A stretch of 62,151 nucleotides of DNA from an uncultured Saprospiraceae bacterium (GTDB lineage Bacteria; Bacteroidota; Bacteroidia; Chitinophagales; Saprospiraceae): contig CALIEI010000054.1 of NCBI GenBank assembly GCA_938022165.1, positions 1 through 62,151 on the forward strand, in the 5' to 3' direction. The position numbers and the translations under genes were made by a program. Below the pieces are notes generated by a model, which was not told the DNA's origin, did no database searches, and saw only the letters and a list, made by a program, of their open reading frames with translations. Of the stretch, positions 37,730 to 62,120 are shown one piece after another (position 1 is the first letter of the stretch; every line of letters begins with the position of its first letter).

Positions 37730-37878
37730 CTATTTTGGATGAGATTTTTTCTTTTTGAAATTTAGTGATGCTTGCGCACGCCTATTTATAGTCGCACAGG
37801 CATCAGTGGATTGAGAAAAGAGAAAATATCGCCAAAAGAGACATTTTGGAATTTTGTGACTTTGCGGAGTAAACTCAA
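37730..37878 (+). repeat. Dispersed repeat, copy A (inverted partner at 61993-62120)
   Basis: Runs from CTATTTTGGATGAGATTTTT through GTGATGC, a 30-nt loop, GCATCAGTGGATTGAGAAAA, then GAAAATATCGCCAAAAGAG and GCGGAGTAAACTCA. The reverse complement of 61993-62120 has the same blocks in the same order, except that the loop between the GATGC and GCATC arms is CTGA. It lies upstream of fdhD in an intergenic space without genes. Confidence 0.85.
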
Positions 37879-37889
37879 GGGTACGCAAT

Positions 37890-37922
37890 AAAAAAAGCCC
37901 CCAAAAAAATTGGAGGCTTTCT
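37890..37922 (-). terminator. Intrinsic terminator of the OmpA / helix-hairpin-helix operon
   Basis: AAAGCCCCCAA and TTGGAGGCTTT arms (one mismatch) with an A-run on the left that reads as U on the minus strand, 66 bp after the stop at 37988. Confidence 0.78.
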
Positions 37923-37987
37923 CTATGATTTATTTTGAATTTGATAATCTCAAGACCTAATAAATAGCCCTTGAAAGATCAAACTGC

Positions 37988-39547
37988 TTATGACAATTTA
38001 CCGCCGTCATGCTCGTCTTGCCACTTTTCAAGTGCTTCCCACTCACCACGTGCAGCCATACCAGCTTGTAAAGGCCATGATGCAGGATCATGCATTTTAA
38101 ATCTAGGTCCAGCTTCATCCAACAATCCTTTGATAACGCTAGGATCCGTATTTGATAATGCTACCCAAGTCTTGATACCACCTGCTTTAATGATCTCACC
38201 TATTTTTGGTCCTATTCCTTCGATCTTAGTCAAGTCATCTTCAGCAGTAGGATCAACAGCTGCTATTGGATTAACAGGAGCAACAGGCGTCTGAGATACA
38301 AATCCTGCCACTGGAGCAGCAGGCGTTTCAGTAACAGTTTCAGCTACTGCATCCACTGGATTTTTTAATTTTCCACCATCGTGCTCATCTTGCCACTTCT
38401 CAAGCGCATCCCATTCACCTCTTGCAGCCATACCAGCTTGTAAAGGCCATGATGCAGGATCATGCATTTTATATCTTGGGCCAGCTTCATTCAATAATCC
38501 CTTGATTACACTAGGATCTGTCTTTGCTAAGTCAGCAAAAGTCTTAATTCCTCCAGCCTTAATAAGCTCTGAAATTTTTGGTCCTATTCCTTCGATTTTA
38601 GTCAAATCGTCTTCTGCTACTGGTGCAGGAGGTGGAGTAGGAGTTGGTGTTACTTTCGCTACAGGCACTGGTATTGGAGTAACTGAAGACTTGTTACTTG
38701 CTTCCAATTGCTCGTGGTGTCTCAATAAGCTTTCATACTTGATCTGTAAGTCACTTCTTTCTGCCTCTGCCTTGCTAGCTGCTTTACGTGCTGCTTCTAA
38801 TTCTGCATCAGCATTAGGATTTACCTCAGGAGCTGCTGCTACCTGCGCTTTTAGCTTTGCGACTTCATCTTTAAGATTCTTATTCTCTGCGGCATGGTCT
38901 ATATCAGAGCTACTTAGATTTGCAGTAGCAGCCACTAATTTGTCATACTTTACTTTCAAAGTATTGCGCTCCAAGTTTGCTTCTTCAAATCTTGGCTTAT
39001 ATGATTCAGACCTTCTGATGTATTCGTCTTTTTCTGCCTTAGTTTCAGATACAACATTTCTAAGCTTCTCTATTTCAGAATCTCTGTTATGAAGAATATC
39101 CGTTAAACGAGCTACTTCCTTTTCGTTTTCATCATCTGATTCAACGACTACTTCGCCAGTTCCTTTCAAGCTAGTTATTTCGCTATTTAGCAAACCAAGT
39201 CTTTGGTTAAGTCCGTCTCTTTCAGTAGAAATAGATCTAAAGTCATTTTCTAACTTACTTGATTTGTTTCTAAGCGTAGCGATTTCACCTTTTTGCTTAT
39301 CGATCAACTTTTCAAAGTTTGACTTCTCTTTCATGAAGCTCAAATTAGACTTTTCAAGTTTGCCATACTTTTTGGCAAAACCAGTATTGCTTGATACTTC
39401 ATTTTCATACTTGTGTCTCCACTCATCTATCTTTGGAGATCTGAACAACCATCCTAGAATGAATGCGCCTACGGCAGTTAATGCTAACCAAAATACCCAA
39501 GAGCATAACATGGTCCAGAATGCGGATAAAACAATTATAGTAAACAT
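37988..39547 (-). CDS. Membrane-anchored coiled-coil protein with two helix-hairpin-helix modules
   Basis: 519 residues. An N-terminal membrane helix (residues 1-35, FWLALTAVGAFILGWLF) is followed by a long heptad-rich coiled coil (about 45-285), a Pro-rich linker (PTPTPPPAPVAEDD), then two near-identical modules at about 309-395 and 433-519, separated by an Ala/Pro linker. Each has a helix-hairpin-helix, DLTKIEGIGPKI, and a unique tail HDPASWPLQAGMAARGEW ending EKWQDEHDGGKL. Such HhH modules bind DNA or protein. The overlap in layout with envelope OmpA proteins (next gene, 34 bp upstream) suggests a cell-envelope scaffold; this is inference. Confidence 0.8.
   Translation of the reverse strand: MFTIIVLSAFWTMLCSWVFWLALTAVGAFILGWLFRSPKIDEWRHKYENEVSSNTGFAKKYGKLEKSNLSFMKEKSNFEKLIDKQKGEIATLRNKSSKLENDFRSISTERDGLNQRLGLLNSEITSLKGTGEVVVESDDENEKEVARLTDILHNRDSEIEKLRNVVSETKAEKDEYIRRSESYKPRFEEANLERNTLKVKYDKLVAATANLSSSDIDHAAENKNLKDEVAKLKAQVAAAPEVNPNADAELEAARKAASKAEAERSDLQIKYESLLRHHEQLEASNKSSVTPIPVPVAKVTPTPTPPPAPVAEDDLTKIEGIGPKISELIKAGGIKTFADLAKTDPSVIKGLLNEAGPRYKMHDPASWPLQAGMAARGEWDALEKWQDEHDGGKLKNPVDAVAETVTETPAAPVAGFVSQTPVAPVNPIAAVDPTAEDDLTKIEGIGPKIGEIIKAGGIKTWVALSNTDPSVIKGLLDEAGPRFKMHDPASWPLQAGMAARGEWEALEKWQDEHDGGKLS
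37999..38629 (-). repeat. Tandem gene-internal duplication (372-bp period)
   Basis: Two DNA segments (about 37999-38257 and 38371-38629) encode the two helix-hairpin-helix modules. Stretches such as CATACCAGCTTGTAAAGGCC are identical at 38059 and 38431, while third positions elsewhere differ, so the copy is old enough to have diverged slightly or is homogenised by recombination. Confidence 0.85.
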
Positions 39548-39581
39548 GATATATTTATTTTTTGTGTGTTTTTTAAAATGA

Positions 39582-40472
39582 TTAGTTAGTTACGATGATT
39601 TCAACTCTTCTATTCTTTGCTTTCCCTTCATCCGTATCGTTGGTAGCGAGTGGCTTAGTTGGCCCTTCACCTACAATAGAAGTAATAGCACTTTCACGTA
39701 CACCTTGGCGTACCATGTAGTCCTTGATTTCTGCTGCTCTCCTTTTACTCAGTCTAGTATTACCTCCTAGACTACCTACGTTGTCAGTATGTCCTGATAC
39801 TTCGATAGCGGCATCTGATACTTGGCTTACATAGTATTTTAGATCCGCAAAATAAGTTTTCAAAGCTTGATCCATGTTCACTTGGTTCGAACCAGTAGCA
39901 AAATAGATGCGGTAAGGTTCCGCCTTCAGTCGCTGTCCGATATCTGCTAGATCACTAGCTCCTCTAAAGTTGAAACTTACACCTTCTCTTAGTAGATTCT
40001 TTGGTGTGAATTTCAAGCTGTAGTCAGAAAGACCAGTTGTGATGATATTAGCAGCTGGAGCACCATTCGAAACAAGATTAGCCTTAATGGCTTCAGCACG
40101 CGCAACACCTAGGTTGTCGTAGGAGCCAGAATAGCTTTGGTTCTCATCCTCTTTGTAAAAACCAGTCAGCAAAAGTTGCCGATCGGTATTACCTTTGAGG
40201 TAAGTGCTGACTTGATTGAATGCAGTTTGCGTTTTAGCCGGCACATTTGGGTCCGCGCTAGTTATAGGGAAGGTAAAGTGGTTTGCCGATCCAGCATTAA
40301 ATCGACTGCCATCATTCACATTCCATACCATTTCCTCCTTCACGGGAGCAGCTGGGATTACTTCCTTAGGTTTTGCTTCTACTTTATTACAAGTAGGACA
40401 AGACAAAAAGTAAGATCCAGCCCCTATCCACGCCAATAAAAGGAGTAATAGTGGGTAGAAAAATTTGTGCAT
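39582..40472 (-). CDS. OmpA-family protein with two OmpA-like domains
   Basis: 296 residues. The N-terminal hydrophobic segment MHKFFYPLLLLLLAWIGAG is followed by SYFLSCPTCNK, so either a membrane anchor or a signal. Residues 50-165 form a divergent OmpA-like domain (LLLTGFYKEDENQ, LGVARAEAIKANLV), residues 180-296 a canonical one: YFATGSNQVNMDQA, EVSGHTDNVGSLGGNTRLSK and NRRVEIIVTN with the peptidoglycan-binding Asp and Arg. It probably links the membrane to peptidoglycan. The coiled-coil/HhH gene follows after 34 bp, and both end at the terminator 37890-37922. Confidence 0.87.
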   Translation of the reverse strand: MHKFFYPLLLLLLAWIGAGSYFLSCPTCNKVEAKPKEVIPAAPVKEEMVWNVNDGSRFNAGSANHFTFPITSADPNVPAKTQTAFNQVSTYLKGNTDRQLLLTGFYKEDENQSYSGSYDNLGVARAEAIKANLVSNGAPAANIITTGLSDYSLKFTPKNLLREGVSFNFRGASDLADIGQRLKAEPYRIYFATGSNQVNMDQALKTYFADLKYYVSQVSDAAIEVSGHTDNVGSLGGNTRLSKRRAAEIKDYMVRQGVRESAITSIVGEGPTKPLATNDTDEGKAKNRRVEIIVTN

Positions 40473-40668
40473 TGTTATTGCAGTTTTAAAAAATTATAGA
40501 ATAGTTTGAGAAGTGAGTTGGTTTTTCATTTCTCTTACATTATTTAGACATCCAAAAATAGGAAAAGATACGCTTAAATCATTGATAATGTTTGAGTATT
40601 GATAAAAGTTAAGCTATAATCATCGATACTTTTACTTGGTATTTTGAAGAAACGATAAATACACAGCC

Positions 40669-42291
40669 TCACTTCATTAATGGATCAGCGATCGAGCGAT
40701 CATTGGATAGCCTGGGTACTTTATTCTGACCACCCAATTTGCCTTGCGATTTCATATAATCTCTAAAAGCATTTTTCCGTAAGCTACTGATCTTAAGCGG
40801 GCGCAAGATTTGTCCTTTTATCAGATCACGATAATAAATATTTTGATTAATCATCTCATTATCAAGCGTCTGCGAGAAAGATTCTAAATCCTGAGGCGCT
40901 TTTGCAAATTCTATCAGCCACTCGTGATAGGGCAGCCCTTCTATAGGGTTTACCTGTGGCGCTACCGTAAATTCGACCACTTCTACTTGATGCTTAGCAC
41001 AGGCATCTACCATTGCCTTCTCTACTTCTTTGCCTATCACATGCTCGCCAAATGCAGAAATGAAATGCTTGATACGACCAGTCACGATTATTTTATAAGG
41101 ATCTAAGGATACAAATTCTACCGTGTCTCCAATGTTATATCCCCATAGCCCAGCATTCGAGTTCAATACGATCACATAATTCACGCCGAGCTCCACCTCC
41201 TTGATACTCATTCTTGATGCATCCACTTTCCCGAATTCAGCGGCAGGGATAAATTCAAAAAATATCCCTGAGTTCGTATTCAATAACAGTCCCTTTTCAT
41301 TTGTATCATCCTGGTAAGCAATGAATCCCTCTGAGGCCGGGTAGGTTTCCAAAGTAGGTATAGACTTTCCAACCAACTTTTCTAACACCTCCCGATAGGG
41401 CTCAAAGTTCACTCCGCCATAAACAAACATATTGAAGTTGGGAAACAATTCACTGATCGAAGCTGCTCCCGTTTTTTCGAGTAGCCGTTCATAATACATT
41501 TGTACCCAAGGTGGTATTCCACTTATCAGCCGCATATCTTGCTCCTTGGTCTCCTCCACGATCCGATCCAGTTTCGTCTCCCAGTCATCTATACAGTTGG
41601 TTTCATAGCTTGGCAGTTGATTACCACGCAGCCAGCTAGGGACCATATGATTTACTATGCCTGACAGACGCCCAGTCAATATTCCTGAAGTTTTACTTAG
41701 TTGTGGACTGCCTGACAAAAATATCATCTTACCATCCACCCAGTCACCTTTACCCGACTGCGCATAATAGTTGAACAATGCATTTCGAGCTGTCCCAAAA
41801 TGGTTCGGAATACTATCCTTAGTGAGCGGTATATATTTAACCCCCGAGGTTGTTCCCGAAGTCTTAGCCAGATACTTAGGCACCCCCGGCCACAACACAT
41901 CCTTGGCACCATCTCTCACCTGATCAAAATATTTTTTCAACTCCTCATAGTCTCTCACTGGCACGGCAGACTTAAAATCCACATACGACTTCACCTTTCC
42001 CAGTTGATGATCTTTACCGAATTGTGTGGCAGCTGCTTTCTGTATATTTTTATGGAGTATTTTATGCTGATCGGCCACTGCATTTTTTGCATTTCTCTGA
42101 ATCATTGCAGACACACGCTTCGCAATTGGTTTAAGCAAAAATGATTTTACAGCCATGGCATAAAGATAAAATTTTCCTTCTTCTAGTTCAGTATAATTTG
42201 GGTGGCGGACGGGCTTTCCGTTTGTATCTAGCACGCCTAGATCTGCTTCAGTATAGTCGTGCTTAGTCTTCGTTATGCACTCAGCCGTCAT
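40669..42291 (-). CDS. GH3 family acyl-acid-amido synthetase-like protein
   Basis: About 540 residues, soluble. GH3 enzymes are ANL-type adenylate-forming ligases; plant members join amino acids to auxin or jasmonate, bacterial substrates are mostly unknown. Signatures are ATQFGKDH near 90, the phosphate-binding loop YLAKTSGTTSGVKYIPLT near 145-162, ASEGFIAYQ near 330 and NIGDTVEFVSLDPYKIIVTGR near 395-415. Start uncertain: ATG 42291 follows AAGGAGTG, but homologues usually begin at the internal ATG 42156 (MAVKSFLLKPIAKRV), so the first 45 residues may not be translated. Confidence 0.85.
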   Translation of the reverse strand: MTAECITKTKHDYTEADLGVLDTNGKPVRHPNYTELEEGKFYLYAMAVKSFLLKPIAKRVSAMIQRNAKNAVADQHKILHKNIQKAAATQFGKDHQLGKVKSYVDFKSAVPVRDYEELKKYFDQVRDGAKDVLWPGVPKYLAKTSGTTSGVKYIPLTKDSIPNHFGTARNALFNYYAQSGKGDWVDGKMIFLSGSPQLSKTSGILTGRLSGIVNHMVPSWLRGNQLPSYETNCIDDWETKLDRIVEETKEQDMRLISGIPPWVQMYYERLLEKTGAASISELFPNFNMFVYGGVNFEPYREVLEKLVGKSIPTLETYPASEGFIAYQDDTNEKGLLLNTNSGIFFEFIPAAEFGKVDASRMSIKEVELGVNYVIVLNSNAGLWGYNIGDTVEFVSLDPYKIIVTGRIKHFISAFGEHVIGKEVEKAMVDACAKHQVEVVEFTVAPQVNPIEGLPYHEWLIEFAKAPQDLESFSQTLDNEMINQNIYYRDLIKGQILRPLKISSLRKNAFRDYMKSQGKLGGQNKVPRLSNDRSIADPLMK

Positions 42292-42369
42292 CACTCCTTA
42301 CTTCAGGCAGATCTATGCGCACTAGATATCACTGCTATCCCTGCCACAAAAAATGTTTGTTTAAAAGAA

Positions 42370-43230
42370 AAGTTCGTCGATGTTTTCAACCTTGCGTTAG
42401 TATACAAGTATTAAAATGCCTTTGCTAGTTTATGTCAACATGTTGGATTTATACACCAATAAAAAAATAAAAGTTAGTCCACGGCTCTAGCCGTGGATTC
42501 TATACGCGTGTATAGCTTAGCTATTGTTTAAAAGAATCTTTTCAAAAAAGTAAAATATAAGCATAGCATAAGAGCTATGTTTGATACGTGTACTGGATCT
42601 ATGACTGGAGCCATAGACCAACGAGGTATTTTATTTATATCATAAAAGGAATTGAAAAATATCTGCCGCAACGTGGCAAAATAAATTAGCCTAGGGTTGA
42701 AGCCCTAGGTCATCAGAAAGCAAGAAATTATAGCCCCAAAGCGCCTGCCCAACTCGTAGAGGTGGGGGCGTAATAAAAGCTGTATCACTTGCAGCTCTAA
42801 TTAAAAGGTAATTTTGAAAGACTTTAATAATTGATATTTTCACAAATACTTAATTTCCTCGACTTTTAATTTGTGTCCTAACGCAAGGTTGAAAACCTCG
42901 ACGATATAAAAAAAGAAAGAAAGATAGTCGATGTTTTCAACATCGATTCAATACACTCGTCTCAAAATTTGTATCCTAACGCAAGGTTTTTAACTACTAT
43001 TTATTGCGCTATACCGAAGGTATAAAAGCACAGCAAACGGAGTGCGCGAGAGGCTAGCGGTGGCAGCGGCATGGCCGACAATAAAAATAATTTTGATAAA
43101 ATAAATTGCTTACTAACAATAAATAAGCTGAATAGAAAAGCAAAATTCTAAGGCCATATAGCGAACGACGCGACTCCACCGAAGGTCGGAGAAGACCCCA
43201 AAACCACTTCATATTACATTTAATTGTTAT
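42370..43230. repeat. Palindrome-rich, REP-like island
   Basis: The 1.1-kb gap 42300-43415 holds no gene but at least six short palindromes: TCCACGGCTCTAGCCGTGGA (42478-42497), CTATACGCGTGTATAG (42500-42515), CCTAGGGTTGAAGCCCTAGG (42690-42709), TCGATGTTTTCAACATCGA (42928-42946), and TATACCGAAGGTATA (43010-43024). A longer sequence, GTCGATGTTTTCAACCTTGC at 42376, recurs inverted at 42878-42903 (CTAACGCAAGGTTGAAAACC) and partly at 42973. They look like REP elements; no REP-associated transposase gene is in the window. Confidence 0.7.
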
Positions 43231-43433
43231 GCAATAATTACCGCTTCTAGGGTAGTCAAATTAGAGAAATATTTAAGCTAAAGAAGCTATTTTTGTCTAC
43301 TCATATAGTACAATGAAGATTTCCACTTAAAAAAGAATCCCCTACGTTTCTTTTTTGCAATTGTATTTCCGTAAGCCGCAGCTTTTACATTAAACACAAA
43401 CATTCAATTCACCAGTTGAGTGTCTACTCACTT

Positions 43434-46400
43434 ATGGAAAAAACAATTATGAACAAGCCAACACGTTTTATTTATCTAGCCCTTTCATTCTTTTTACTTA
43501 CACACTCCTTGCAACTATTTGCAGATAATTTTGATTCGGCAACGAATGGTTTATCAGCACCTGCCACCCCAGCGAGTCCTATGGTAATGGATATTACGGT
43601 GTGCGATGGAGAGTCTACAGAAATAACACCGGTCGCAGGAATGGGCGCAGGAACTGGTGGAGGAACTTCTATTATTTTTTCTGAAACATTTGATACTGAT
43701 GGAGAAGGAGTAGCAGGCGCATGTACAGGTGCCGCAACGAGTACCTGTGCAACCAATGTAGCGCCTGCAAATGGTCAATGGTCCATTACGGGTGATGTTT
43801 CTGGATTTACGGCAACATCTGACTTTGCTATCACAAGTGGCGGGATGTTGGAGTTTCAAGATACCGATACTGAAGTGTGTTTTACCACTAGTATGATAGA
43901 TATATCTGCTTGTACCACATCTGATTTTATGGTAGGTATTTCGGAAGCAGGCACCATGGAATCAACAGACTACGTGGATGTAAATTTCATAGTTGATGGT
44001 GTGTCTAGTATGGTACCCAATTGGATGGGCCTTGGAGACGGGATGCATACTTTGATAGATGATTTTACGGCAACTACGGTGAGTCAAACGGGCATAGTTG
44101 GAAATACGCTGGTCATCGAAATCTGTGTAATGAATAACTCTGGTGCGGAATCTCATTTCTTAGATAACATCATGGTGGGTTGTGACGCCGCTGGTACGGG
44201 AGCGGTTACTTTCAAATACTACGATATGGATCCGGCTACAGGTGCGACTCCAATAGCTGGACCTACGACTGACCCATTTGATCCTATGACGGCAGCTGGT
44301 GAAATGGATATGATATGGGTGACTGCTTGTGAAGGGACGTGTGAAAGTGCAGCTAGCAAAGTAACTGTAATTGTAAATGAAATACCGATGGCACCAATGG
44401 CGATGGGGGGTACTTTTTGTGATGGAGATATGATCGCAGATGTAGTTCCTACTGGAGAAGCTGGAGCATTATTTTCATATTACAGTGATGCTGGATTGAT
44501 GACTTTGATTCAGACTGGAGCTACTTATACACCAATGGGAACTATTGGTGTAGAAACGATTTATATAACGCAAACGATTAATGGCTGCGAAAGCGATGCT
44601 GTTGAAGTCAACATAGAGGTCTTACCAACTCCAGCAGCTCCAACAGCGGAGAGTGTTACCTTTTGTCTTGGAGAACCTGTTGAAGACATTGAAGCAGTAG
44701 GAGAGCCAGGTGCTATATTTACATATTATAGCGATGCGGCATTGACTGCCTTAATCCAAACAGGGGCAAATTATACACCTATGGGTAACCCCGGAACAGA
44801 AACCGTTTTTGTAACACAAACAGTCGGCGGTTGCGAAAGTGCAGCTACACAAGTAGATATCACTATCGCTGGATTTGAAAATATCACAGTAGAACCAACA
44901 TGTAATGTCGATGTATTGGATTATTGTCTTGATATTACTTTTGATTTTGTAGGTCCTGGCCCATCAAACATGTATGAAGTAGTTGTCAACGGTATTTTGT
45001 TTGGCCCTTTTGCATACGGAACTACTGGTTCTGAAGCAATCACAATTTGTGATCCTGTTAATTTTATCGGAGATGAGCAAACAGGGCTTGCTGTTGAAGT
45101 AGCAGACTTGGATAGAGGTAATCTTACAGAAGGGATCACGCAAACTGGTGGAGGTGCTTCCAATCTTGAAGGTTGTATTGAAATATCTGCAGTATTGGCG
45201 GCACAGAATGCGGACAATAATGGAGACGGACTTGTCGATTTTTGTGATGAATTTATCACCTTGACCAATGGGGGTACTGCACCACTTGATATATCTGGGT
45301 ATACGATTTCTGATGCAGTGGCAGTGAGACATATCTTTACAACAGTTACATTGATAAACCCTGGTCAAACGATCACACTATTTAATAGTGATTTGAATCA
45401 AGTCGCTAATTGCGCTGGTTCTGGTATTTGGAATAATGGTGGCGATGACATTATATTAAATGATGCTATAGGAGGCCTGGTTGATATGGAGACATATGGA
45501 GGCAGTACTGCTGGTGTGCAAGAAGACTTTGAGGTGATTGGCTGCGGTCAAGGTATGACTACTGGTACAGGACCTTCTTCTTGTTTGCAGATCAACTCAG
45601 TGATGGCAAATCAAAATGCTGACAATGATGGCGATGGTGCGATTGATTTTTGCGATGAATTTATTACCATCACTAATCCTGGAAATATGCCATTAGATAT
45701 TTCAGGATATATGATTTCTGATGCAGCTACACTACGTCATATTTTTCCAACTACTACGATCTTAGCGCCAGGTCAGGTGTTGACCATTTTTAATAGTGAT
45801 TTGAGTGAAGTGGCCAACTGTGCTGGAGCAGGAGTCTGGAATAATGGGGGTGATGATATTATAATTGTTGATGCCCTTGGCGCACCAGTAGACAGCGAAA
45901 CTTATGGTGGCTCTCAATCAGGTGTTGAATTTGCTTTTGCTATAGATCCATGCCCAGTAGGAATGATTATGGACAACGGGGTTTGTTCTGGTCTTACAGA
46001 ATTTGATGAACCAAATTGTTGTCCTGAGATCGAAATTTCCTCATTCATGGCGATGAGTATATGTGCTGGTTCTTGTCCAGCTCCGGGCTCAGGCTTGATG
46101 GTAACGGGGGAATGTGGAAATATTCCTAGCGCTTCAGAAACAAAATGGTATTCAGATCCTGCTGGAATGTTTTTGGTTTTTGAGGGGGATGTTTTTGATC
46201 CTATCTCAGAAGGGGTGTTGGATAATTCTACGCCCGGCCAGTTTAAGTTTTATGCACAAGTGAGTTGTGATTTTTGTTTATCAGAACTTACTCCAGTGAC
46301 GGTAGATATTTTTGATTGTGATCCTCCAAATGATGCTTGTGGAGGATGCACATATATAGTTCAGCTTTATGATACTGGATTCAATGGTTGGGAAGGCGCT

Positions 46401-53887: not shown

Positions 53888-55063
53888 ATGAGTTTTATTC
53901 TTGGGATTTTAGTTGCAATACTAGGCTTACTGTTAGTAGTGGTGATAAAGCTATCAACCACATTCTTTCATGAACTAGGACACGCTTTTCCTGCGCTCCT
54001 GTTTACGGAGAAATCTGTTACAGTGTATATCGGTTCCTACGGTGATATATCGAACACGAAATATTTTGAGTTTGGAAGGCTAAAAATTTATTTCAAGCTG
54101 AATATAATGGATTGGAAAATCGGGATGTGCAGACACGAAGAGCATGCTTCGCATAATTGGAAAACGGCTCTGATCATTTTAGGAGGCCCGATAGCTAGTT
54201 TGATTATTTCCTTGCCCTTGTTCTTTTATTTAAAATCTATAGAGCAACATACCTTTTTGTTTTTTCTGTGCATTGTTTTTATTGCAGCGGCAGTATATGA
54301 TTTGTTTATCAATCTGTGGCCTTTTGGAGGTGGTTTTGTTATGCATGATGGTTCGATAGCTTTTAGTGATGGTGTCGCTTTATCTATGCTCTATTCTAGG
54401 AGTAGACTCTCTAAGGAATTTTTTGAATTAGAAAAGCTACATCAAGCCAAAGACTATACGGCTCTTATTGAGAGTGGGAAAGAGGCTATAGATATTCCGG
54501 TCAAAGGTCGCTTCGCTTATGATTTTGTTATTGCTGGATATACTGAATTGAAAGAATACCAATCTGCTCTAGACACCTATGCTTCACTCAAACACCAAGT
54601 AAAACTAGTCGATAGTGATTACTTTGAAATCGGTAAGCTCTATAAAGCTGCCAACAATTATCAAGAAGCTTTAAAGTATTTTATACACTACAAGTACAAA
54701 CATTTTGGTGATATAAATCTCCTAGAAGAGCTTGGAGAATTGTACCTCGATATGGGCGATGAGGATAAAGGCTTAGAGACAGCCAACATTTTACTGGGTA
54801 TAGATAGCAATCACTTTAAAGGACGTCTATTGAAGAGTAGAGCTTTGACAATATTTGAAGAGTTTCCTTCGGCTATTGAAGAAGCAGATTATGCTGCATC
54901 CTTAAACCCAGAGGATCCATCTGTTTATTATCAATACGGCTTGATTTATGAAAAACTGAATAGGCCTAAATTGACTCTTGAAAATTTTCAGAAAGCAAAA
55001 GCACTTGGCTGTGAAGTTCATGGATTAGATTATAAGATCGAAATTGCGGAAAGTAGAATTTAA
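53888..55063 (+). CDS. M50-like membrane metalloprotease fused to a TPR domain
   Basis: 391 residues. Residues 1-22 are a membrane helix leading into the zinc motif H28-E-L-G-H32 (FFHELGHAFPALLF). Two more hydrophobic segments (about 97-117 and 123-143) are followed by NLWPFGGGFVMHDG, which replaces the NPDG-type third ligand motif of site-2 proteases and keeps HDG. From about 185 to the end come six TPR-like repeats (YQSALDTYASLKHQV, ANNYQEALKYFIHY, NPEDPSVYYQYGLIYEKL). The zinc motif supports peptidase activity, but the altered third motif leaves this open. It stands alone after the peroxidase terminator. Confidence 0.75.
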   Translation: MSFILGILVAILGLLLVVVIKLSTTFFHELGHAFPALLFTEKSVTVYIGSYGDISNTKYFEFGRLKIYFKLNIMDWKIGMCRHEEHASHNWKTALIILGGPIASLIISLPLFFYLKSIEQHTFLFFLCIVFIAAAVYDLFINLWPFGGGFVMHDGSIAFSDGVALSMLYSRSRLSKEFFELEKLHQAKDYTALIESGKEAIDIPVKGRFAYDFVIAGYTELKEYQSALDTYASLKHQVKLVDSDYFEIGKLYKAANNYQEALKYFIHYKYKHFGDINLLEELGELYLDMGDEDKGLETANILLGIDSNHFKGRLLKSRALTIFEEFPSAIEEADYAASLNPEDPSVYYQYGLIYEKLNRPKLTLENFQKAKALGCEVHGLDYKIEIAESRI

Positions 55064-55259
55064 CTAAGACAAATAAACTAAGGATGACTTAGGTGACTTG
55101 TGCACGATATATTGGCTTAGGTTTTCTTAGGTGGTTTTCTGAATCAGCTTTGCCTTTCACCTTACATATTCATTCCTATAAATTCAGTTGTTGAGAAGTT
55201 TTCCCTATTGGAATGTTACATTTCAGCAAGTCTGCGTTATACTATTATAAATAACTCAA

Positions 55260-56015
55260 ATGAAAACGCAGATCAACCTTTTATTAATCCTAGTCATTCT
55301 ACTATTTGTACCTGAATTATCCGCCCAAATGGATACCATCTACAACATTGGTTTGGATAGAAATCGCTTCACCTTAGAAGAATTAAACCAGCATATCGAA
55401 GAACGCCGAGCAAACATTACGGAGGAGGATGGGCTAGTACTTCGTTTTGAAATTAATAATGAAGTTGTAGAAAATGATACACTAGTAAAGTATGGGGTAA
55501 TGCATTATATCGGATTGTCTATCCTAGATGATGAAGATAAAGCGAATATCAGATTGAATAATAAATTACCAAGTTTTGAATTTGTTGACTTAGAGGGTAA
55601 GACTTTGCACTCTGATGAACTCATTGGAAAAGTAGTACTCATCAATTTTTGGTTTACAAGGTGCGCTCCATGCATCGAAGAAATGCCTTACTTGGATCAG
55701 CTCAAAGAAGCTTATGAAAAAGATGGCGTTGTGTTTATTTCCATGGCACCCGAAGAGTCACCGCAAATAAAGTCTTTTTTGAAGAGACATGATTTTTCAT
55801 ATAGGCATATTCCAGACGCTGATGCGTTTTTGAAAAAATTTGGGGTAGGATTTCCCAAGAATATATTGGTTGATAAAGAAGGTATGATAAGATACATTGA
55901 TTCCGGTATCATGGGTGTAGTGGCTACCGTTGATGATAGTGGTAGAATTAATGAGAATTATGAGTTGGAATGGGATGCTTTAAGATCAAAGATGGAGTTG
56001 CTTATTTCACAATAA
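55260..56015 (+). CDS. Exported TlpA-like thioredoxin-fold protein
   Basis: 251 residues. Signal peptide MKTQINLLLILVILLFVPEL ending SAQ at 23. A poorly conserved N-terminal part (about 24-98) precedes a redoxin domain: LPSFEFVDLEGKTL, GKVVLINFWFTRCAPCIEEM with C135-A-P-C138, VFISMAPEE, and the cis-Pro loop VGFPKNILVDKEG. It is expected to reduce disulfides in the periplasm, in a way related to TlpA/ResA. The next gene starts 14 bp after the stop and is probably in the same operon. Confidence 0.87.
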   Translation: MKTQINLLLILVILLFVPELSAQMDTIYNIGLDRNRFTLEELNQHIEERRANITEEDGLVLRFEINNEVVENDTLVKYGVMHYIGLSILDDEDKANIRLNNKLPSFEFVDLEGKTLHSDELIGKVVLINFWFTRCAPCIEEMPYLDQLKEAYEKDGVVFISMAPEESPQIKSFLKRHDFSYRHIPDADAFLKKFGVGFPKNILVDKEGMIRYIDSGIMGVVATVDDSGRINENYELEWDALRSKMELLISQ

Positions 56016-56029
56016 TTAAAATACTCAAA

Positions 56030-56974
56030 ATGTCAGCTAATCAATCTATAAACAAAAAAATGAAACAGTCGATTCTTGTTTTAATTATAGGATTTTTATT
56101 TTTTGCAAATCTTAATGGACAACAATTTGAAAAATCAAAAGCAGATAGTCTGCGAGATGAGGGAAATATAAAGTTGGCTGTCCAAGAATATTCTAAACTT
56201 TACCAGCAAGATTCAACAAATAGAAACAATACCTACAACTATGCTCGTGCATTAGCATTAGATAGGCAAATTGATACTGCGTTTTATTATCTTAATATAG
56301 CCACTGCAAAGGACACCTCTGTTCAAACATTAAATGACCCTGATTTTTATTTTTTGATTGAAGATGATAGATGGGCGGGGCTCCAAAATAACTTGGTAGA
56401 ACGAGTAGAAGCCAAGTTTGGCAAGTACAAAAATATAGAGTTGTCAAAAGAGCTTTGGACCATGGGAATTAAAGATCAAGCTTTTTATTATCATTTAGAT
56501 GTAGTCAATAATACTGTTGGTAGAGAATCCCCAATAAACGCAGCAATTTGGGAATTAAAAAAGAAAATAAATAATCAAAATTTGAATAGGTTAGTGGAAA
56601 TAATAGATACACATGGATGGCCAAAAAAATCTGTTGTTGAAGGAAGCGCTGCAAGTTCAGTTTTTCTGATTATTCAACATGCTGGAATTGAAACCCAAAA
56701 AAAATATCTTCCACTAATGACGGAAGCGGCTAATAATGGAGAAGCAGAATGGAGTTCTTTGGCCTTGCTAATAGATAGGGTGAATTTACGAGAGGGTAAG
56801 GAGCAAAAATATGGTTCACAAATATATCGAAATAAAGATGGTTCATTCTATGTGAAGGATTTACAAGAACCAGAATATGTAAATCAAAGAAGAAAGGAAG
56901 TTGGACTTGGACCTATAGAAGAGTACGTACAGAGATTTGGAATAGAATGGACTATTGAACAGAAGGAGAAGTAA
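56030..56974 (+). CDS. DUF6624 exported protein
   Basis: About 314 residues from ATG 56030; ATG 56060 (MKQSILVLIIGFLFFANLNG) is equally possible and gives a tighter signal peptide. Residues about 35-110 form TPR-like helices (GNIKLAVQEYSKLYQQDSTN). The C-terminal half is a DUF6624 domain: LVEIIDTHGWPKKSVVEGSA, FLIIQHAGIETQKKYLP, LALLIDRVNLREGKEQKYGS and QEPEYVNQRRKEVGLGPIEE. Function unknown. It follows the TlpA-like gene by 14 bp. Confidence 0.78.
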   Translation: MSANQSINKKMKQSILVLIIGFLFFANLNGQQFEKSKADSLRDEGNIKLAVQEYSKLYQQDSTNRNNTYNYARALALDRQIDTAFYYLNIATAKDTSVQTLNDPDFYFLIEDDRWAGLQNNLVERVEAKFGKYKNIELSKELWTMGIKDQAFYYHLDVVNNTVGRESPINAAIWELKKKINNQNLNRLVEIIDTHGWPKKSVVEGSAASSVFLIIQHAGIETQKKYLPLMTEAANNGEAEWSSLALLIDRVNLREGKEQKYGSQIYRNKDGSFYVKDLQEPEYVNQRRKEVGLGPIEEYVQRFGIEWTIEQKEK

Positions 56975-57134
56975 AAAAGGCTTAGAGAATAACGTTTAGT
57001 TGTGATACAATTTTCTTTGCAACTTTGCAACAGTTAAATCTCTTAACTTAGGAAGTTTGCAAAAAGTTTAATTTGTTTATAATTTACGTTTTGCATATAT
57101 TTAAATTTTAAATTATCCAAAATTAAAATCATAA

Positions 57135-57866
57135 GAAAAATCAAAAATCAAAAATCAAAAGTCAAAAGTCAAAAATTTTTCATTACTCTTTTTATTCCTG
57201 ATATTCTTTTTATCTAGCTGTGAAAATCAAAAGGAAAATATTCAAACTGAAACTGAAAATATAGTCTACAAGTATAATTATAGTCTGACAGGCGATGTTT
57301 CTGGCCTAGGTATTGCCCATAACGATGGGCTAGATTGTGTTTATGATAAATTAATAAATAATCATATTTGCTTAAATAGCTTCGAATTCAATAGTTTGTC
57401 ATTAAATTATTCAAAAGAATGTCTTGACTTCAGAAATACAGATAGTGATTTTAATCTGGAATTTAATCGTAATTACCATAATATTCAATCACAGCTTGAT
57501 AGAATAGTGGAATTACGAACTGTGATAGATAATGAAAATAGTGACTCATTTGTTATTGAAAGTATAGATATAGCCATAGCATCCTTAATCTATTGGCATA
57601 ATAATGTATTCAAATGGCATGACCTTCCTTATTGTAGTGAAAGTGGTAGTTATCAAAATCAAGTAGTTGATCCTCGAAACGGTTTTGACGCAGAGGGAGT
57701 GGAGTGGCTAGGGGAAACTATTTGGAACATGGCTGAGGCTGATTTTTGGTCGGGTTTAGTTGGGGGAATCGGATCCTTTGGTAATCCAGGTGTGATTGTT
57801 GGTGGGGCACTATGGGGGTCTGCAGGTGCTGGTATCAGAACTTTATGGGAAAGACCTTGTCCATAA
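57135..57866 (+). CDS. Lipoprotein with Gly-rich C-terminus; start codon obscured
   Basis: The frame that ends at 57866 stays open back to 57135, just after an in-frame TAA, and encodes a lipoprotein signal (NFSLLFLFLIFFLSSC) followed by ENQKENIQTETEN. No ATG, GTG or TTG precedes this signal in frame; the first TTG (57396) would remove it. A heptamer repeat lies exactly where the start codon should be. The mature part is helical with Cys residues, and the last 35 residues (SGLVGGIGSFGNPG, GGALWGSAGAGI) are Gly-rich and hydrophobic like a glycine zipper. Family unknown. Expression may be phase-variable, or this is a gene with a damaged 5' end. Confidence 0.5.
   Translation, partial: EKSKIKNQKSKVKNFSLLFLFLIFFLSSCENQKENIQTETENIVYKYNYSLTGDVSGLGIAHNDGLDCVYDKLINNHICLNSFEFNSLSLNYSKECLDFRNTDSDFNLEFNRNYHNIQSQLDRIVELRTVIDNENSDSFVIESIDIAIASLIYWHNNVFKWHDLPYCSESGSYQNQVVDPRNGFDAEGVEWLGETIWNMAEADFWSGLVGGIGSFGNPGVIVGGALWGSAGAGIRTLWERPCP
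57141..57175 (+). repeat. Heptamer tandem repeat (5 units) at a gene start
   Basis: Five units TCAAAAA, TCAAAAA, TCAAAAG, TCAAAAG, TCAAAAA run from 57141 to 57175, inside the signal-peptide frame of the lipoprotein. One unit gained or lost shifts the frame. Confidence 0.8.
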
Positions 57867-57883
57867 CTTATAATTGTATTGAT

Positions 57884-58075
57884 ATGATAAAATTTCTAAA
57901 ATTTTTAAGGTTTCTATTTATGTTTGTTGGAGGAGGTGTAATCATAAATTATTACCTATTTGGGAAGAAAAATATCGGGGAAGTAATCTTTATTGCAGTC
58001 TTTGTTTCAGTTCTATTTTTATTGTACAACAAAGAAGTAATTTTTGAAGATAGAACTAAGGATAGATTGAATTAG
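57884..58075 (+). CDS. Small two-helix membrane protein
   Basis: 63 residues from the ATG at 57884, 17 bp after the lipoprotein stop; a longer frame upstream only overlaps the lipoprotein. Two hydrophobic helices (LRFLFMFVGGGVIINYYLF and IGEVIFIAVFVSVLFLLY) joined by a KKN turn, with a charged C-terminal tail. No family recognised. Size and position next to a Gly-rich secreted protein resemble an immunity or anchor partner, but this is speculation. Confidence 0.55.
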   Translation: MIKFLKFLRFLFMFVGGGVIINYYLFGKKNIGEVIFIAVFVSVLFLLYNKEVIFEDRTKDRLN

Positions 58076-58094
58076 TTTAGAAAATAAACTTAAA

Positions 58095-58139
58095 ATAAAA
58101 CGGAAGTTACTAAATTATTAAGGTGGCTTCCGTGTTTTA
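58095..58139. terminator. Bidirectional terminator between convergent genes
   Basis: AAAACGGAAG and CTTCCGTGTTTT arms with an inner partial stem (TTACT / AGGTGG), flanked by A- and T-rich runs, between the two-helix gene (plus) and the LolA gene (minus). Confidence 0.75.
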
Positions 58140-58244
58140 TTTTCCTTTAGCTTATCTTTTGATTAAGCACTTTCCTATAATAACCTAGCTGTTATCGAAT
58201 AGATCCTGTAAGAAAAATTTTATTCAGATAATCTCCAAATTCTA

Positions 58245-58940
58245 CTAAAAATCTCTCATATCCTCGACATAGATATCTGGAAAAGCAGAAGCGTCGAACT
58301 CAAACTTGCTACTTGGAATGTCAATATTGGATGCTAGTTTGTCATTGATGAAAGTATATCGAGATCCATCTTTTGAAAATGCCTTGACGCTAACCATATC
58401 AATATTTTTGGTATCAACAGTAAGGCGCAGTTTAGAAAATTCACTATTATCAGAATCAATCGGCTTACATTCAACTAGGGCAACCGTGCGTCCATTTTGC
58501 TTTATCTCATCGCTGATAGCAAAAATAAATGCATCACTTTCATACAGCTTAAGTAGATTTTCTGGACTCATAAAGTTATCCTCTTCAGCGAGTGCCTCTG
58601 CACTATGTATTTGAACCTCGTTGTTGTTCTTGAGATGAATCCAAACTTTCTCTCCGTTGGAGATTACAGATTGCTGCTCAAAGTCCATGTAGAATTTTTT
58701 ATCATCTTGAAAGATTTGCCCTTTCTGTATAATCTTATCTTCTTCTGGAATCTCTATTTCTAATGAAAAATCCATTTTGAGATTATCAAACCCTTCATAC
58801 TTGTCTTTTAGCTTATTGAGAAGACGGGTAGCAGCAGGGTCGCTATCTTCAGTACTACTGTAATCATTGGTTTGCGCAGTGGACACATTAAGTGCTAAGG
58901 CACAAAGCAGTACAAGGATGATATGATTAAGATTCTTCAT
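58245..58940 (-). CDS. LolA-family outer-membrane lipoprotein carrier
   Basis: 231 residues from the ATG at 58940, which opens a signal peptide MKNLNHIILVLLCALALNVS ending TAQ; a longer in-frame start at 58988 would put 16 residues ahead of it. LolA features: LLNKLKDKYEGFDNLKMDFS, GQIFQDDKKFYMDF, VISNGEKVWIHLKNNNEVQI, and a later PSSKFEFDAS. LolA carries lipoproteins across the periplasm to the outer membrane, fitting the many lipoproteins here. Sequence identity to the proteobacterial form is low but the fold pattern is clear. Confidence 0.8.
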   Translation of the reverse strand: MKNLNHIILVLLCALALNVSTAQTNDYSSTEDSDPAATRLLNKLKDKYEGFDNLKMDFSLEIEIPEEDKIIQKGQIFQDDKKFYMDFEQQSVISNGEKVWIHLKNNNEVQIHSAEALAEEDNFMSPENLLKLYESDAFIFAISDEIKQNGRTVALVECKPIDSDNSEFSKLRLTVDTKNIDMVSVKAFSKDGSRYTFINDKLASNIDIPSSKFEFDASAFPDIYVEDMRDF

Positions 58941-59012
58941 GTTATCTACAATTAGTATTATAACCCAAAAACGAGTCAAAAAAGGCACTATAGGTTAAGC
59001 AAAAGTTAAAGC

Positions 59013-60293
59013 CTATGTCTTACGCTTTTTCTTCTTTGCAGCTGGGAAAAGAACATTGTTTAAGATCAGTCTATAGCCTGGAGAATTGGGGTGCAAGCTA
59101 AGGTCTGTCTCGGGATCATTGACAAAGTGTCGATAATCTTCTGGATCATGCCCTCCATAGAAAGTCCAAAATCCTTGGCCTACCGTACTATGTAAATAGC
59201 GTGCTTCATTGGCTGGTTTATTTTCACCCATGATCAGTACGCTTGACTTGATTTGCTCTTTGAGATAAGCTGTAGTCTGTCCCATAAAACCTTTGACGGT
59301 ACGAGTATGGCACTGGGTAAGCATGGATGGAACTGGGTCCCACTTTGCGGAAAAATCAAATAGGGTAAAGTAATCTGTGTTAGGCGAAACTCGACGAGTC
59401 TGACTGTCATCAATAGAGCTGTATTCATATACCAGCGGATCAGTCACCAACTTAAAATCCTTGAAGGCAAAGGTCTTACTAAAATCTAATTTTGATTGTG
59501 CACTTGGATCTTGCCCATCACCATCATACATGTGATCACATATATCCAAACCTTCTGAAGCCAATGCTATGTCATACGTATCTGTAGCAGAACACATGGC
59601 AAACATGAATCCACCTCCGACTACGTACTCTTGTATCTTTTTAACCACCGCCAACTTTAATTGTGATACTTTTTGATATCCAAGCTCTGAGGCTAAGCCC
59701 TCCATACGTTTGACTGTTTCTTTATACCAGCTGGTATTGTGGTAGTTTTTATAAAATTTACCATACTGTCCAGTGAAGTCTTCGTGATGGAGGTGTAGCC
59801 AATCGTATTCTGTTAGCTTATCATCAAGTACCTCTCTATCGTATACGACGTCGTAGGGAATCTCTGCATAGGTCAATACCATAGTCACTGCATCATCCCA
59901 AGGTTGTACCTTTTCGCCTCTAGCATTCACATCAGGAGTATATACCGCAATCTTTGGGGCTACCTCTAGTTTGATTACATCTTGGTTTACTTCAGGATTG
60001 GAAATATCTAATTGGATTTTGGCAAACTGAGCATCAGGAATAATATTGAAACTCACTCCTCTAGTAAGGCATTCTTTTTCAAAAATTTTATTGTGTTTGA
60101 AAGCAAAAGTACCGCCGTCATAGTTGAGCAGCCAAAAAGCTTCAGCGCCTGCATTGAGCACCCAATAGGTGATCCCATACGCTTTGAGGTGGTCTCTCTG
60201 TTCTTCTCCCATAGGCAACATGATATAGGAAGCTTGTAGAGAACTCAGTCCAACAAAAAATAGCGAACAAATAGATAAAATAATTCTGTGCAT
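59013..60293 (-). CDS. Exported conserved Bacteroidota protein (often mislabelled asparagine synthetase B)
   Basis: 426 residues with a signal peptide (MHRIILSICSLFFVGLSSLQ ending AS) and a basic tail KKKKRKT. Conserved blocks: MLPMGEEQRDHLKAYGITYW, LLNYDGGTFAF, a central segment WLHLHHEDFTGQYGKFY, VGGGFMFAMCSATDTYDIAL, and GEARY-type NEARYLHSTVGQGFWTFYGG. The central part suggests a class I glutamine amidotransferase-like fold with Cys in FAMCSAT. Databases label relatives 'asparagine synthetase B', but neither the Gln amidotransferase Cys1 domain nor the ATP-binding synthase domain of AsnB is present. The real role is unknown. Confidence 0.75.
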   Translation of the reverse strand: MHRIILSICSLFFVGLSSLQASYIMLPMGEEQRDHLKAYGITYWVLNAGAEAFWLLNYDGGTFAFKHNKIFEKECLTRGVSFNIIPDAQFAKIQLDISNPEVNQDVIKLEVAPKIAVYTPDVNARGEKVQPWDDAVTMVLTYAEIPYDVVYDREVLDDKLTEYDWLHLHHEDFTGQYGKFYKNYHNTSWYKETVKRMEGLASELGYQKVSQLKLAVVKKIQEYVVGGGFMFAMCSATDTYDIALASEGLDICDHMYDGDGQDPSAQSKLDFSKTFAFKDFKLVTDPLVYEYSSIDDSQTRRVSPNTDYFTLFDFSAKWDPVPSMLTQCHTRTVKGFMGQTTAYLKEQIKSSVLIMGENKPANEARYLHSTVGQGFWTFYGGHDPEDYRHFVNDPETDLSLHPNSPGYRLILNNVLFPAAKKKKRKT

Positions 60294-60568
60294 AGATAAT
60301 TTTTTTCAAATCGACCTTATATTTAAGGCCTACATTCAACAAATTAGAACGTGATTTGTGCCCTAAAGATTACCAATTTTTAGCTTTTAACCCCTTATTA
60401 ACTAAGAGGGAGCTCTAAAATGTGTAAAAAACATAAAATAAATTATTTTTAAGTATCTCAAAGGACCAATAATTAGGTTTTATTTACCTTCATGTAAGGA
60501 AAGGCCCGGCAAAATACTTCGTTTCAAGGCCTGGATTTTCAAATTGTTTATCATTAAAAGCAAATATT

Positions 60569-61435
60569 ATGCGCTGGCAAGGAAGAGAAAAAAGTAAAAA
60601 TATTGAAGATCGCCGTGGAATGAGCGGTGGTACACGAGCTGCAGGAGGTTTGGGTATAGGGGCTGTTATCCTTGTTTTATTAGCCTCAGTATTTTTTGAC
60701 ATCGATATCTCTGGTTTGTTTCAAGGTGGAGCGGGTCAACAACAATATCAGCAGCCAACGGGTCAACGATCTCAAGTAGGTGGAGAAGGTGATGAGCTTG
60801 CAGAATTTGTAGCCGTCACACTAAAAGACACTGAAGATGTGTGGAAGAAGATCTTTCGTGAAGATTTAGGTAGAAACTATCGAGAACCTAATTTGGTACT
60901 ATTTGAAGGGGCAGTTCAATCAGCATGTGGGCATACTTCATCTGCAGCGGGTCCTTTTTATTGTCCTGGTGATGAAAAGATGTACATCGATTTAGTTTTT
61001 TATCGAGAGCTAAAAACTAAATTTAATGCGCCAGGAGATTTTGCTATGGCTTATGTGGTAGCCCATGAAGTAGCGCATCATATCCAAAAACAATTAGGCA
61101 TAACCGATCAAGTCCATCGAAAGCGTGGACGTATCAGTAAGGCAGAGTATAATGATCTGTCTGTACGCTTAGAATTGCAAGCGGACTTTCTCGCAGGTGT
61201 GTGGACGCATCATGCAGAGAAGATGAACAGTATCCTAGAAGAAGGAGATATTGAAGAAGCCTTGACTGCAGCGAATGCCATCGGTGATGATACTATACAA
61301 AAGCGTTCTCAGGGTTATGTAGTTCCTGATTCTTTTACGCATGGTACTTCAGAGCAAAGAGTGCGCTGGTTCATGAAGGGTTTACAAACTGGAGATATTG
61401 CCCAGGGAGATACTTTTGCGGCAAGAAATTTATAG
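60569..61435 (+). CDS. YpfJ-family neutral zinc metallopeptidase
   Basis: 288 residues. Starts MRWQGREKSKNIEDRRGMSG, the family's typical beginning, then a membrane helix (GGLGIGAVILVLLASVFF) and a Gln-rich linker. The catalytic zinc site is H166-E-V-A-H170 (AYVVAHEVAHHIQ), with downstream RLELQADFLAGVW giving the third ligand Glu/Asp region. Other landmarks: SACGHTSSAAGPFYCPGDEK and VPDSFTHGTSEQRVRWF. The domain faces the periplasm. Substrate unknown. Confidence 0.93.
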   Translation: MRWQGREKSKNIEDRRGMSGGTRAAGGLGIGAVILVLLASVFFDIDISGLFQGGAGQQQYQQPTGQRSQVGGEGDELAEFVAVTLKDTEDVWKKIFREDLGRNYREPNLVLFEGAVQSACGHTSSAAGPFYCPGDEKMYIDLVFYRELKTKFNAPGDFAMAYVVAHEVAHHIQKQLGITDQVHRKRGRISKAEYNDLSVRLELQADFLAGVWTHHAEKMNSILEEGDIEEALTAANAIGDDTIQKRSQGYVVPDSFTHGTSEQRVRWFMKGLQTGDIAQGDTFAARNL

Positions 61436-61542
61436 TCTCAACGATTATTTTTTGCTTATTTGTAGTTGTCATAGCAACATTATTTATTTTTTGTTTTATC
61501 TTTGAGTGATCAAATGACCCCAAAGCATTAATACAGTTATAA

Positions 61543-61884
61543 ATGTTGCACACGGCTATCGCTGAATATTTGCACCCATTGCAAGTCAGCGTTAAAAAAA
61601 TGTTTGGTAATCATGCCATTTACATTGACGATAAGATATACCTCGCTATACGAGAAAATTCGGATAATCCAATTGATAATGGTATTTGGATATGCACCTC
61701 TCGCAAGCACCACGAGAGTCTCAAAATAGATTTTCCCTCTTTAACAAAGTTAAGTGCTATCAATTTTAGCAAATGGCTTCTCCTTCCTAAGACTGCTGAA
61801 GATTTCGAGCAATCTGCTAAACAAATTTGTGAAATGATTAAGGTAGGTGATGAACGTATAGGAGTGGAGGTGAAGAGGAAGTAG
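61543..61884 (+). CDS. Small TfoX/Sxy-N-like protein
   Basis: 113 residues, cytoplasmic. Sequence VSVKKMFGNHAIYIDDKIYL resembles the KMFGG-x-G-x-Y-x-D-G core of TfoX N-terminal-like domains, and the C-terminal half (SKWLLLPKTAEDFEQSAKQI) is predicted helical. In gammaproteobacteria the domain belongs to a competence regulator; small single-domain relatives elsewhere have unknown roles, so no competence function is implied. An alternative is a distant MmcQ/YjbR-like fold. Confidence 0.5.
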   Translation: MLHTAIAEYLHPLQVSVKKMFGNHAIYIDDKIYLAIRENSDNPIDNGIWICTSRKHHESLKIDFPSLTKLSAINFSKWLLLPKTAEDFEQSAKQICEMIKVGDERIGVEVKRK

Positions 61885-61992
61885 GATGGAAGTAGTGTTG
61901 ATGATTTCATCATTGGTGTGATGCGCTTATCTAACTTTTTGTCTGAACTAACCTGTGCGACTCCTTAAGAGGCGTAGATTTTTAGGATTAAA

Positions 61993-62120
61993 AGATGAGT
62001 CCGCTCCGAGAACTCACGAAAGCACAAAATGACTCTTTTGGCGATATTTTCCATTTTCTCAATCCACTGATGCTCAGGCATCACTGAATTTCGAAAATAA
62101 AAAATCTCATCCAAAATAGC
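61993..62120 (-). repeat. Dispersed repeat, copy B (inverted partner at 37730-37878)
   Basis: Reverse-complement of this segment reads GCTATTTTGGATGAGATTTT onward, then GTGATGC-CTGA-GCATCA, ATTGAGAAAATGG, GAAAATATCGCCAAAAGAG and CGGAGCGGACTCAT. Blocks and order match copy A; the 30-nt loop of copy A is replaced by 4 nt. It may continue past 62120 to the window edge. Confidence 0.85.

What the first reader, a model, noticed from the sequence alone, without database searches (positions are those of the whole stretch)
37730..62120. Inverted repeat pair 24 kb apart with a conserved hairpin and a variable loop
Segments 37730-37878 and 61993-62120 are reverse complements over roughly 120 aligned bases. 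Both contain a GATGC...GCATC stem flanked by conserved blocks (ATTTTGGATGAGATTTTT, GAAAATATCGCCAAAAGAG). The stem is the same, but the loop differs (about 30 nt against 4 nt), which is how a structured RNA or a mobile non-coding element evolves. The pair could also recombine and invert the 24-kb segment that carries fdhD to the YpfJ-type peptidase.
Basis: seen in the sequence. Interest (0 to 1): 0.66.

Follow-up and report, generated by a model that had tools for sequence, protein, structure and literature searches.

The report
Hairpin MITE carrying a 24-bp module
The two mirror-image segments are two of many copies of a short, gene-less jumping DNA element that folds back on itself, and some copies carry an extra 24-letter hairpin module that also turns up in a different repeat of the same genome.

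Summary
The 24-kb pair is two copies of a high-copy MITE: 37691-37877 (187 bp) and 61996-62151 (cut by the contig end). The genome has 161 terminal-repeat matches (reversed control 1). Target duplications are 4 bp: exact in 33 of 53 own copies; in a wider set 43 of 71 against 1.7%. Four of four congeners with fdhD keep the neighbouring genes without the insert. The same ends flank a 574-aa IS1182-like transposase in a Saprospiraceae MAG. The window's genome shows no homologue, so mobilisation in trans is inferred. The element is a fold-back hairpin with compensatory changes, but fold-back origin explains this; strand bias is weak and absent elsewhere and gene orientation unbiased. The 'variable loop' is a 24-bp ladder: 0-2 units (up to 4 in a congener) of CYTGTGCGAC-N8-GGCGTG in either arm, with a variable but self-complementary core. 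The same unit sits in an unrelated CACAAAG-type repeat, with empty sites present. A 24-kb inversion is not supported. Precedents: MITEPye1, BrickBuilt. The shared module is the new part.

The parts
37691..37877 (+). MITE copy 1, full length, 187 bp, with one 24-bp module in its right arm
   Evidence: ends at 37691 and 37877; alignment with 29 other genome copies and copy 2; flanks ATGA/AGGG, so no intact target duplication
37691..37709 (+). left terminal inverted repeat of copy 1 (4 mismatches to TGAGTCCACTCCGGAAAGT)
37859..37877 (-). right terminal inverted repeat of copy 1 (3 mismatches)
37777..37800 (-). 24-bp hairpin module CCTGTGCGAC-TATAAATA-GGCGTG inside copy 1 (the 'long loop')
   Evidence: pattern hit G000:C54:37777-37800:-
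61996..62151 (-). MITE copy 2, short form without the module, truncated by the contig end (156 of about 163 bp)
   Evidence: core pattern hit at 62064-62086
61954..61974 (+). solitary module-like unit TGTGCGAC-TCCTTAAGA-GGCG outside the MITE (core of 9 instead of 8), 21 bp from the end of copy 2

Best explanation
A non-autonomous MITE of IS1182-like type. SHOWN by sequence: an element of about 163 bp, about 19-bp terminal inverted repeats, 4-bp target duplication at ANNNNT sites, mostly intergenic placement, insertion absent from congeners, fold-back along its whole length, and the same ends plus a 4-bp duplication on a 1844-bp element that encodes a DUF772/IS1182-like transposase in another Saprospiraceae MAG. 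INFERRED: a DDE transposase of that kind, acting in trans and now missing or unassembled in this genome, moved the element. Also SHOWN: the centre carries 0, 1 or 2 copies of a 24-bp unit (24-bp ladder) in either arm, inverted with respect to each other, and the same unit is found in another repeat family beside empty sites of that family. INFERRED: the unit entered the MITE as a discrete insertion; most tandem copies (same core) arose locally by slippage, and double-arm forms arose by exchange between left-arm and right-arm forms. Identical arms may be avoided because a long perfect palindrome would be unstable (general knowledge, not tested).
For: 161 terminal-repeat matches in the genome, reversed control 1. 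Exact 4-bp duplication in 43 of 71 elements of several genomes against 1.7% for mismatched flanks; lengths 2, 3, 5 and 6 show no excess. Own complete copies: 33 of 53 exact, 44 of 53 with at least 3 of 4, base -5 A in 46 of 53, +5 T in 52 of 53. 42 of 67 short elements from public genomes exact against 2.8%. Transposase element L258:4352-6195 with AAAT/AAAT, DUF772 E 5.3e-13, IS1182 model E 7.8e-24. A 35% identical homologue in same-family genome G039 lies between TGAGCCCACTCT and AGAGTGGGCTCA; 5 of 113 terminal-repeat loci hold a tblastn hit at E 1e-3, the weakest (L178) at exactly 0.001. Empty site: no terminal repeat at up to 6 mismatches in 4 of 4 congener gaps. Fold-back: z -9.18 and -7.47 on the two strands of copy 1. 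Module ladder: centres of 6 (29), 30 (16) and 54 nt (5) in the 50 of 55 own copies with this core. Filled 46-bp and empty 22-bp sites in the CACAAAG repeat, 4 and 6 of 10.
Against: No homologue of the transposase in the window's own genome, nor in 98 of the 99 other genomes searched, so the trans-acting step is not shown; the genome is a 258-contig assembly at 87.7% completeness. The transposase is under the NCBIfam IS1182 cut-off (84 of 270 bits). Copy 1 itself has no target duplication and 20 of 53 own copies lack an exact one. Only one transposase element with both ends and an exact duplication was found; the G039 one matches in 3 of 4 bases (read by eye). One congener gap (G002) is as long as the window's, 308 against 303 bp, filled with unrelated sequence. 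A different 196-bp core with the same ends makes up 5 of 55 own copies. The ladder counts come partly from loci fetched because they hold the unit; an exact genome-wide core search gives 33 without, 13 with one unit and 1 with another loop, of 47 (it cannot see two-unit centres). One centre of 52 in G004 breaks the ladder.
Confidence: 0.9

Rival explanations
1. A structured RNA: the hairpin is kept because its transcript has a function (mRNA stabiliser, terminator or small RNA), and spread is secondary.
For: Covariation across 30 copies: 11 of 64 pairs with changes on both sides, 98.5% of cells paired, 0 of 500 shuffles. The + strand folds better than its complement in 65 of 66 copies; consensus mismatches are 7 G-T against 1 A-C.
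Against: The G-T/A-C excess gives p = 0.07 only, and 50 elements with the same ends elsewhere show no such excess (249 of 410 against 260 expected). No orientation bias relative to flanking genes (10 ++, 9 --, 10 -+, 3 +-). No Rfam match in the window. The copies are related, so shuffles overstate significance, and sliding the partner by +1 still gives 7 pairs changed on both sides. Arm-to-arm repair of a DNA palindrome would also give paired changes.
Confidence: 0.08
2. An inversion switch: the pair recombines and flips the 24-kb segment.
For: Inverted orientation, 80-83% complementary arms of about 80 nt.
Against: The pair is two of dozens of copies; identity is low for homologous recombination (general knowledge); gene order across copy 1 equals that of 4 of 4 congeners with fdhD.
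Confidence: 0.03
3. The 24-bp unit is not mobile: it entered an ancestral MITE and an ancestral CACAAAG repeat by rare recombination and later spread as a passenger of both; its variable core is ordinary divergence under selection or repair that keeps it palindromic.
For: In both families the unit sits at fixed positions, as expected if each was entered once or twice. Tandem copies share one core at C57 and in G004 (C11, C22, C326).
Against: The four filled CACAAAG sites found without reference to the arms have four different cores, while the arms differ only at the second and the last base. It lies in both MITE arms in opposite orientation, beside the MITE at 61954 in a further context, and at C121 a degenerate tandem neighbour has another core.
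Confidence: 0.6

Closest known systems
MITEPye1 of Paracoccus yeei (PMC11578231; passages, and section 3.6)
   Same: 159 bp, 18-bp terminal repeats like IS1182-family elements, 4-bp direct repeats, intergenic, folds into one long stem-loop
   Different: 1-3 copies in the chromosomes (passage) against dozens here; no internal 24-bp module described in what I read; sequences not compared
BrickBuilt MITE of Porphyromonas gingivalis (PMC4596501; abstract, section 5 and part 1 of 2 of section 7)
   Same: a Bacteroidota MITE with an internal short tandem unit (23 nt) of variable number
   Different: IS5-type ends, tandem arrays of up to 22.8 units, target duplications of inconsistent length; here 24-bp units sit in opposite arms, mostly 0-2, and recur in another repeat family
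IS1182-family insertion sequences (ISPse1, table passage in PMC3281130: 1653, 16/16, 4, which I take as length, ends and duplication)
   Same: 4-bp duplication, one transposase gene, similar size (1844 bp for L258)
   Different: the L258 transposase is below the family model's cut-off
Small dispersed repeats of cyanobacteria (Elhai et al. 2008; cited in PMC3116915 and PMC2884548, passages; the paper itself is not held)
   Same: units of some 20 bp, tandem and dispersed, which might be mobile
   Different: sequence and mechanism not compared; other phylum
REP/REPIN palindromes with RAYT transposases (PMC3733652, PMC3116915; passages)
   Same: short hairpins with a fixed motif and variable stems or loops
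   Different: GTAG follows the solitary window unit but the other units read GGCGTG or GGCGTA; no RAYT gene was sought; the MITE itself has target duplications

Membership tests
MITE | short element without coding capacity | tested here: met
   paired elements of 38-333 bp, main form 163 bp, too short for a transposase
MITE | terminal inverted repeats | tested here: met
MITE | target-site duplication of constant length | tested here: met
   4 bp, 33 of 53 own copies exact; 43 of 71 against 1.7% control
MITE | absence at the orthologous site in relatives | tested here: met
   copy 1 only: absent from 4 of 4 congener gaps between the HHH gene and fdhD
IS1182-related MITE | ends shared with an autonomous IS1182-type element | tested here: met
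   L258 element: same ends with 4-bp duplication; transposase matches the IS1182 model at E 7.8e-24
IS1182-related MITE | transposase above the curated family cut-off | tested here: not met
   84.4 of 270 bits; hence 'IS1182-like', not filed as a member
IS1182-related MITE | cognate transposase in the same genome | tested here: not met
   no match at E 1e-5 in G000; assembly incomplete
BrickBuilt | IS5-type ends GAGACC... | tested here: not met
   ends are TGAGTCCACTCC; BrickBuilt ends from Table 2 of PMC4596501
Rfam RNA family | match at gathering score | tested here: not met
   0 matches in the window
REP/REPIN | GTAG or CGTC end tag and a RAYT transposase | not tested
   no search made for a RAYT gene; GTAG follows one unit only of those read

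The most novel reading that the evidence does not exclude
The 24-bp unit CYTGTGCGAC-N8-GGCGTG is itself a mobile nano-element: it inserts precisely, without target duplication, into the centre of the MITE (both arms) and into a CACAAAG-type repeat, in both after a G (not so at window 61954). Its core is remade at each move as a new short palindrome, as if a hairpin intermediate were opened and refilled.
Probability: 0.2. Interest if true: 0.65.

Novelty: new variant of a known kind. Interest (0 to 1): 0.36.

Why it matters
It explains why several contigs of this genome end inside the repeat, and shows that one set of ends, TGAGTCYACTCCGRAAAGT, marks MITEs in many Bacteroidota genomes with an IS1182-like partner. 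The module shared by two unrelated repeats is a testable case of very small mobile DNA outside cyanobacteria.

Tried and rejected
An IS3-type partner was suspected from the look of the ends; rve domains were searched in six genomes and the six hits' loci read, none with the ends at up to 5 mismatches. The viral collection gave one match at a single end, with no partner in the stretch held. Rfam: nothing at gathering score. tRNA/tmRNA: none in the window. RNA-strand selection: tested, weak here and absent elsewhere. A literature search for hairpin repeats inserted without target duplication in Bacteroidetes returned nothing.

Ascertainment: the solitary units were found by an exact pattern for their arms, so arm conservation there proves nothing; only the 4 filled sites and MITE copies fetched by similarity or by their ends are free of that bias. 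The 18 core types are related by descent, so its shuffle control overstates. In one search, 7 of 100 genomes match, but five have one hit each and the reversed control has one hit in each of six genomes; only G000 and G004 count.
Full report
WHAT IS THERE. The window is one whole contig of a 258-contig genome of 3.9 Mb. Against the genome they are two copies of one interspersed repeat: 48 matches at 40 places with the first copy as query, although only 40 of 146 candidates were scored. An alignment of 30 loci (one of them copy 1) with both window copies shows sharp ends, TGAGTCCACTCCGGAAAGTAGCGG... and ...CTTTTCGGAGTGGACTCA, with unrelated flanks. The end sequence alone has 161 matches with up to 3 mismatches, against 1 for the reversed pattern. 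Copy 1 is 37691-37877; copy 2 runs from 61996 to the contig end and lacks about 7 bases. Several contigs begin or end at or inside this repeat (for example C7, C84, C155, C164), so copy numbers are lower bounds.

MOBILE. Elements with paired ends show a 4-bp direct repeat of the target: 43 of 71 exact, while mismatched flanks agree in 1.7%; lengths of 2, 3, 5 and 6 show no excess (own and related genomes). For this genome alone 33 of 53 copies are exact and 44 of 53 agree in at least three bases; the target is ANNNNT (A in 46 of 53, T in 52 of 53). Copy 1 has no such repeat (ATGA/AGGG). Copy 1 lies between an HHH-domain gene and fdhD and ends six bases before the called fdhD start. Five congeners were searched with fdhD and four have it; in all four the HHH gene is its neighbour, and none of the four gaps has the ends at up to 6 mismatches. 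Three of these gaps are shorter (117, 141 and 207 bp against 303 as cut); the fourth, G002, is as long (308 bp) but unrelated. So copy 1 is an insertion and the order on both sides of it is shared: no inversion breakpoint there.

PARTNER. Within 100 relatives (own included) 11 have the ends at up to 2 mismatches, most in G000 (125), G004 (77), G057 (35), G065 (23) and G010 (14). Of these, 68 hold a short paired element, and 42 of the 67 with both flanks have an exact 4-bp repeat against 2.8% in the control. One stretch, L258 from a Saprospiraceae MAG, holds a 1844-bp element with these ends, AAAT on both sides, and one 574-aa gene. That protein matches DUF772 (E 5.3e-13), weakly and below cut-off DDE_Tnp_1, and the IS1182 model at E 7.8e-24 but under its cut-off. 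tblastn of it finds four more of the 113 stretches (L190, L263, L154 and, at E 0.001, L178). Among 100 genomes (own included) only G039 has a homologue, 35% identical, lying between TGAGCCCACTCT and AGAGTGGGCTCA with a 3-of-4 target match (the last read by eye). The window's genome has none. That the MITE moved by such an enzyme in trans is inference, with precedent in MITEPye1 of Paracoccus yeei (PMC11578231, section read), where mobilisation is also inferred from the ends.

FOLD. Copy 1 folds as one long hairpin on either strand (z -9.18 and -7.47). On 30 copies, 11 of 64 pairs have changes on both sides and no shuffle of 500 reaches that; slid by +1 the count is 7, by other slides 0 to 3. 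One strand is more stable in 65 of 66 copies, resting on 7 G-T against 1 A-C mismatches in the consensus (p = 0.07). Fifty elements with the same ends elsewhere show no such bias. Orientation relative to neighbouring genes is balanced, and 25 of 33 copies overlap no ORF of 90 aa or more by over 30 nt.

THE VARIABLE LOOP. Between CAGTGATG and CATCAGTGG the centre is 6 nt in 29, 30 nt in 16 and 54 nt in 5 of 50 own copies, and up to 102 nt in a congener: steps of 24, with one centre of 52 in G004 as exception. Part of these loci were fetched because they hold the unit; an exact genome-wide search for the core gives 33 without a unit, 13 with one and 1 with another loop, of 47. Each step is one unit CYTGTGCGAC-N8-GGCGTG. 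It lies in the left arm, or inverted in the right arm, or in both; where both arms carry it the cores differ in 5 of 5 own copies. Head-to-tail copies share one core at C57 and in G004, but at C121 a degenerate second unit has another core. Across 18 distinct 10-nt core types, 38 of 54 inner positions pair, against 22 for shuffled halves, and 0 of 5000 shuffles reach 38 (the types are related). The unit also occurs outside the MITE: at window 61954-61974 and on contigs C57, C77, C121, C183, C206, C221 and C241, mostly inside a repeat built of CACAAAG or CATAAG motifs. A search for that repeat made without reference to the unit gives 10 sites: 6 empty (22 bp) and 4 filled (46 bp), a difference of exactly 24 bp, with four different cores and arms that differ only at the second and last base. 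Of 100 relatives only the own genome and G004 have it credibly.

READING. The MITE is a new family of a known kind. The unit is the unusual part: a constant-armed, variable-cored 24-bp hairpin shared by two unrelated repeats. The cautious reading is rare entry into each family followed by passive spread and slippage; the bold reading is a nano-element that moves on its own. BrickBuilt (PMC4596501; abstract, section 5 and part of section 7 read) shows that a MITE can hold a 23-nt minisatellite, there as tandem direct repeats.

ORGANISM. Neither the tools nor the window name it. A contig of same-family genome G010 has the same length and match position as a named Saprospiraceae record, so the family is probably Saprospiraceae (inference).

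Noticed in passing
window 42369-42989: Another inverted repeat family (CCTAACGCAAGGTTG, copies in both orientations) upstream of the large secreted protein gene; 11 places in the genome with up to 1 mismatch, reversed control 0.
   Followed up: partly
L034, L044, L284, L285, L286; L043 cut by a contig end: A different core (196 bp in the five complete copies) between the same MITE ends; the one folded has two extra internal hairpins.
   Followed up: partly
L138:1501-1538; L049 near 2982; L050 near 3252: Minimal forms: 38 bp with the two ends back to back and AGAT target repeats, and 29-bp TGAGTCC...ACTCA hairpins.
   Followed up: no
L081-L087: A repeat built of CACAAAG, CATAAG or CATATAAG motifs, host of the 24-bp unit; motif variants go with particular loci.
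   Followed up: partly
window 11431-11522: A 46-bp unit in tandem (85% identical copies), each with GCCCGGC followed by a T-run.
   Followed up: no
window 37684-37691: Copy 1 ends six bases before the called fdhD start codon, so the MITE may supply or displace the promoter and leader of fdhD.
   Followed up: no
window 37995-38245 and 38367-38617: A 251-nt direct duplication (83%) within the HHH-domain gene.
   Followed up: no
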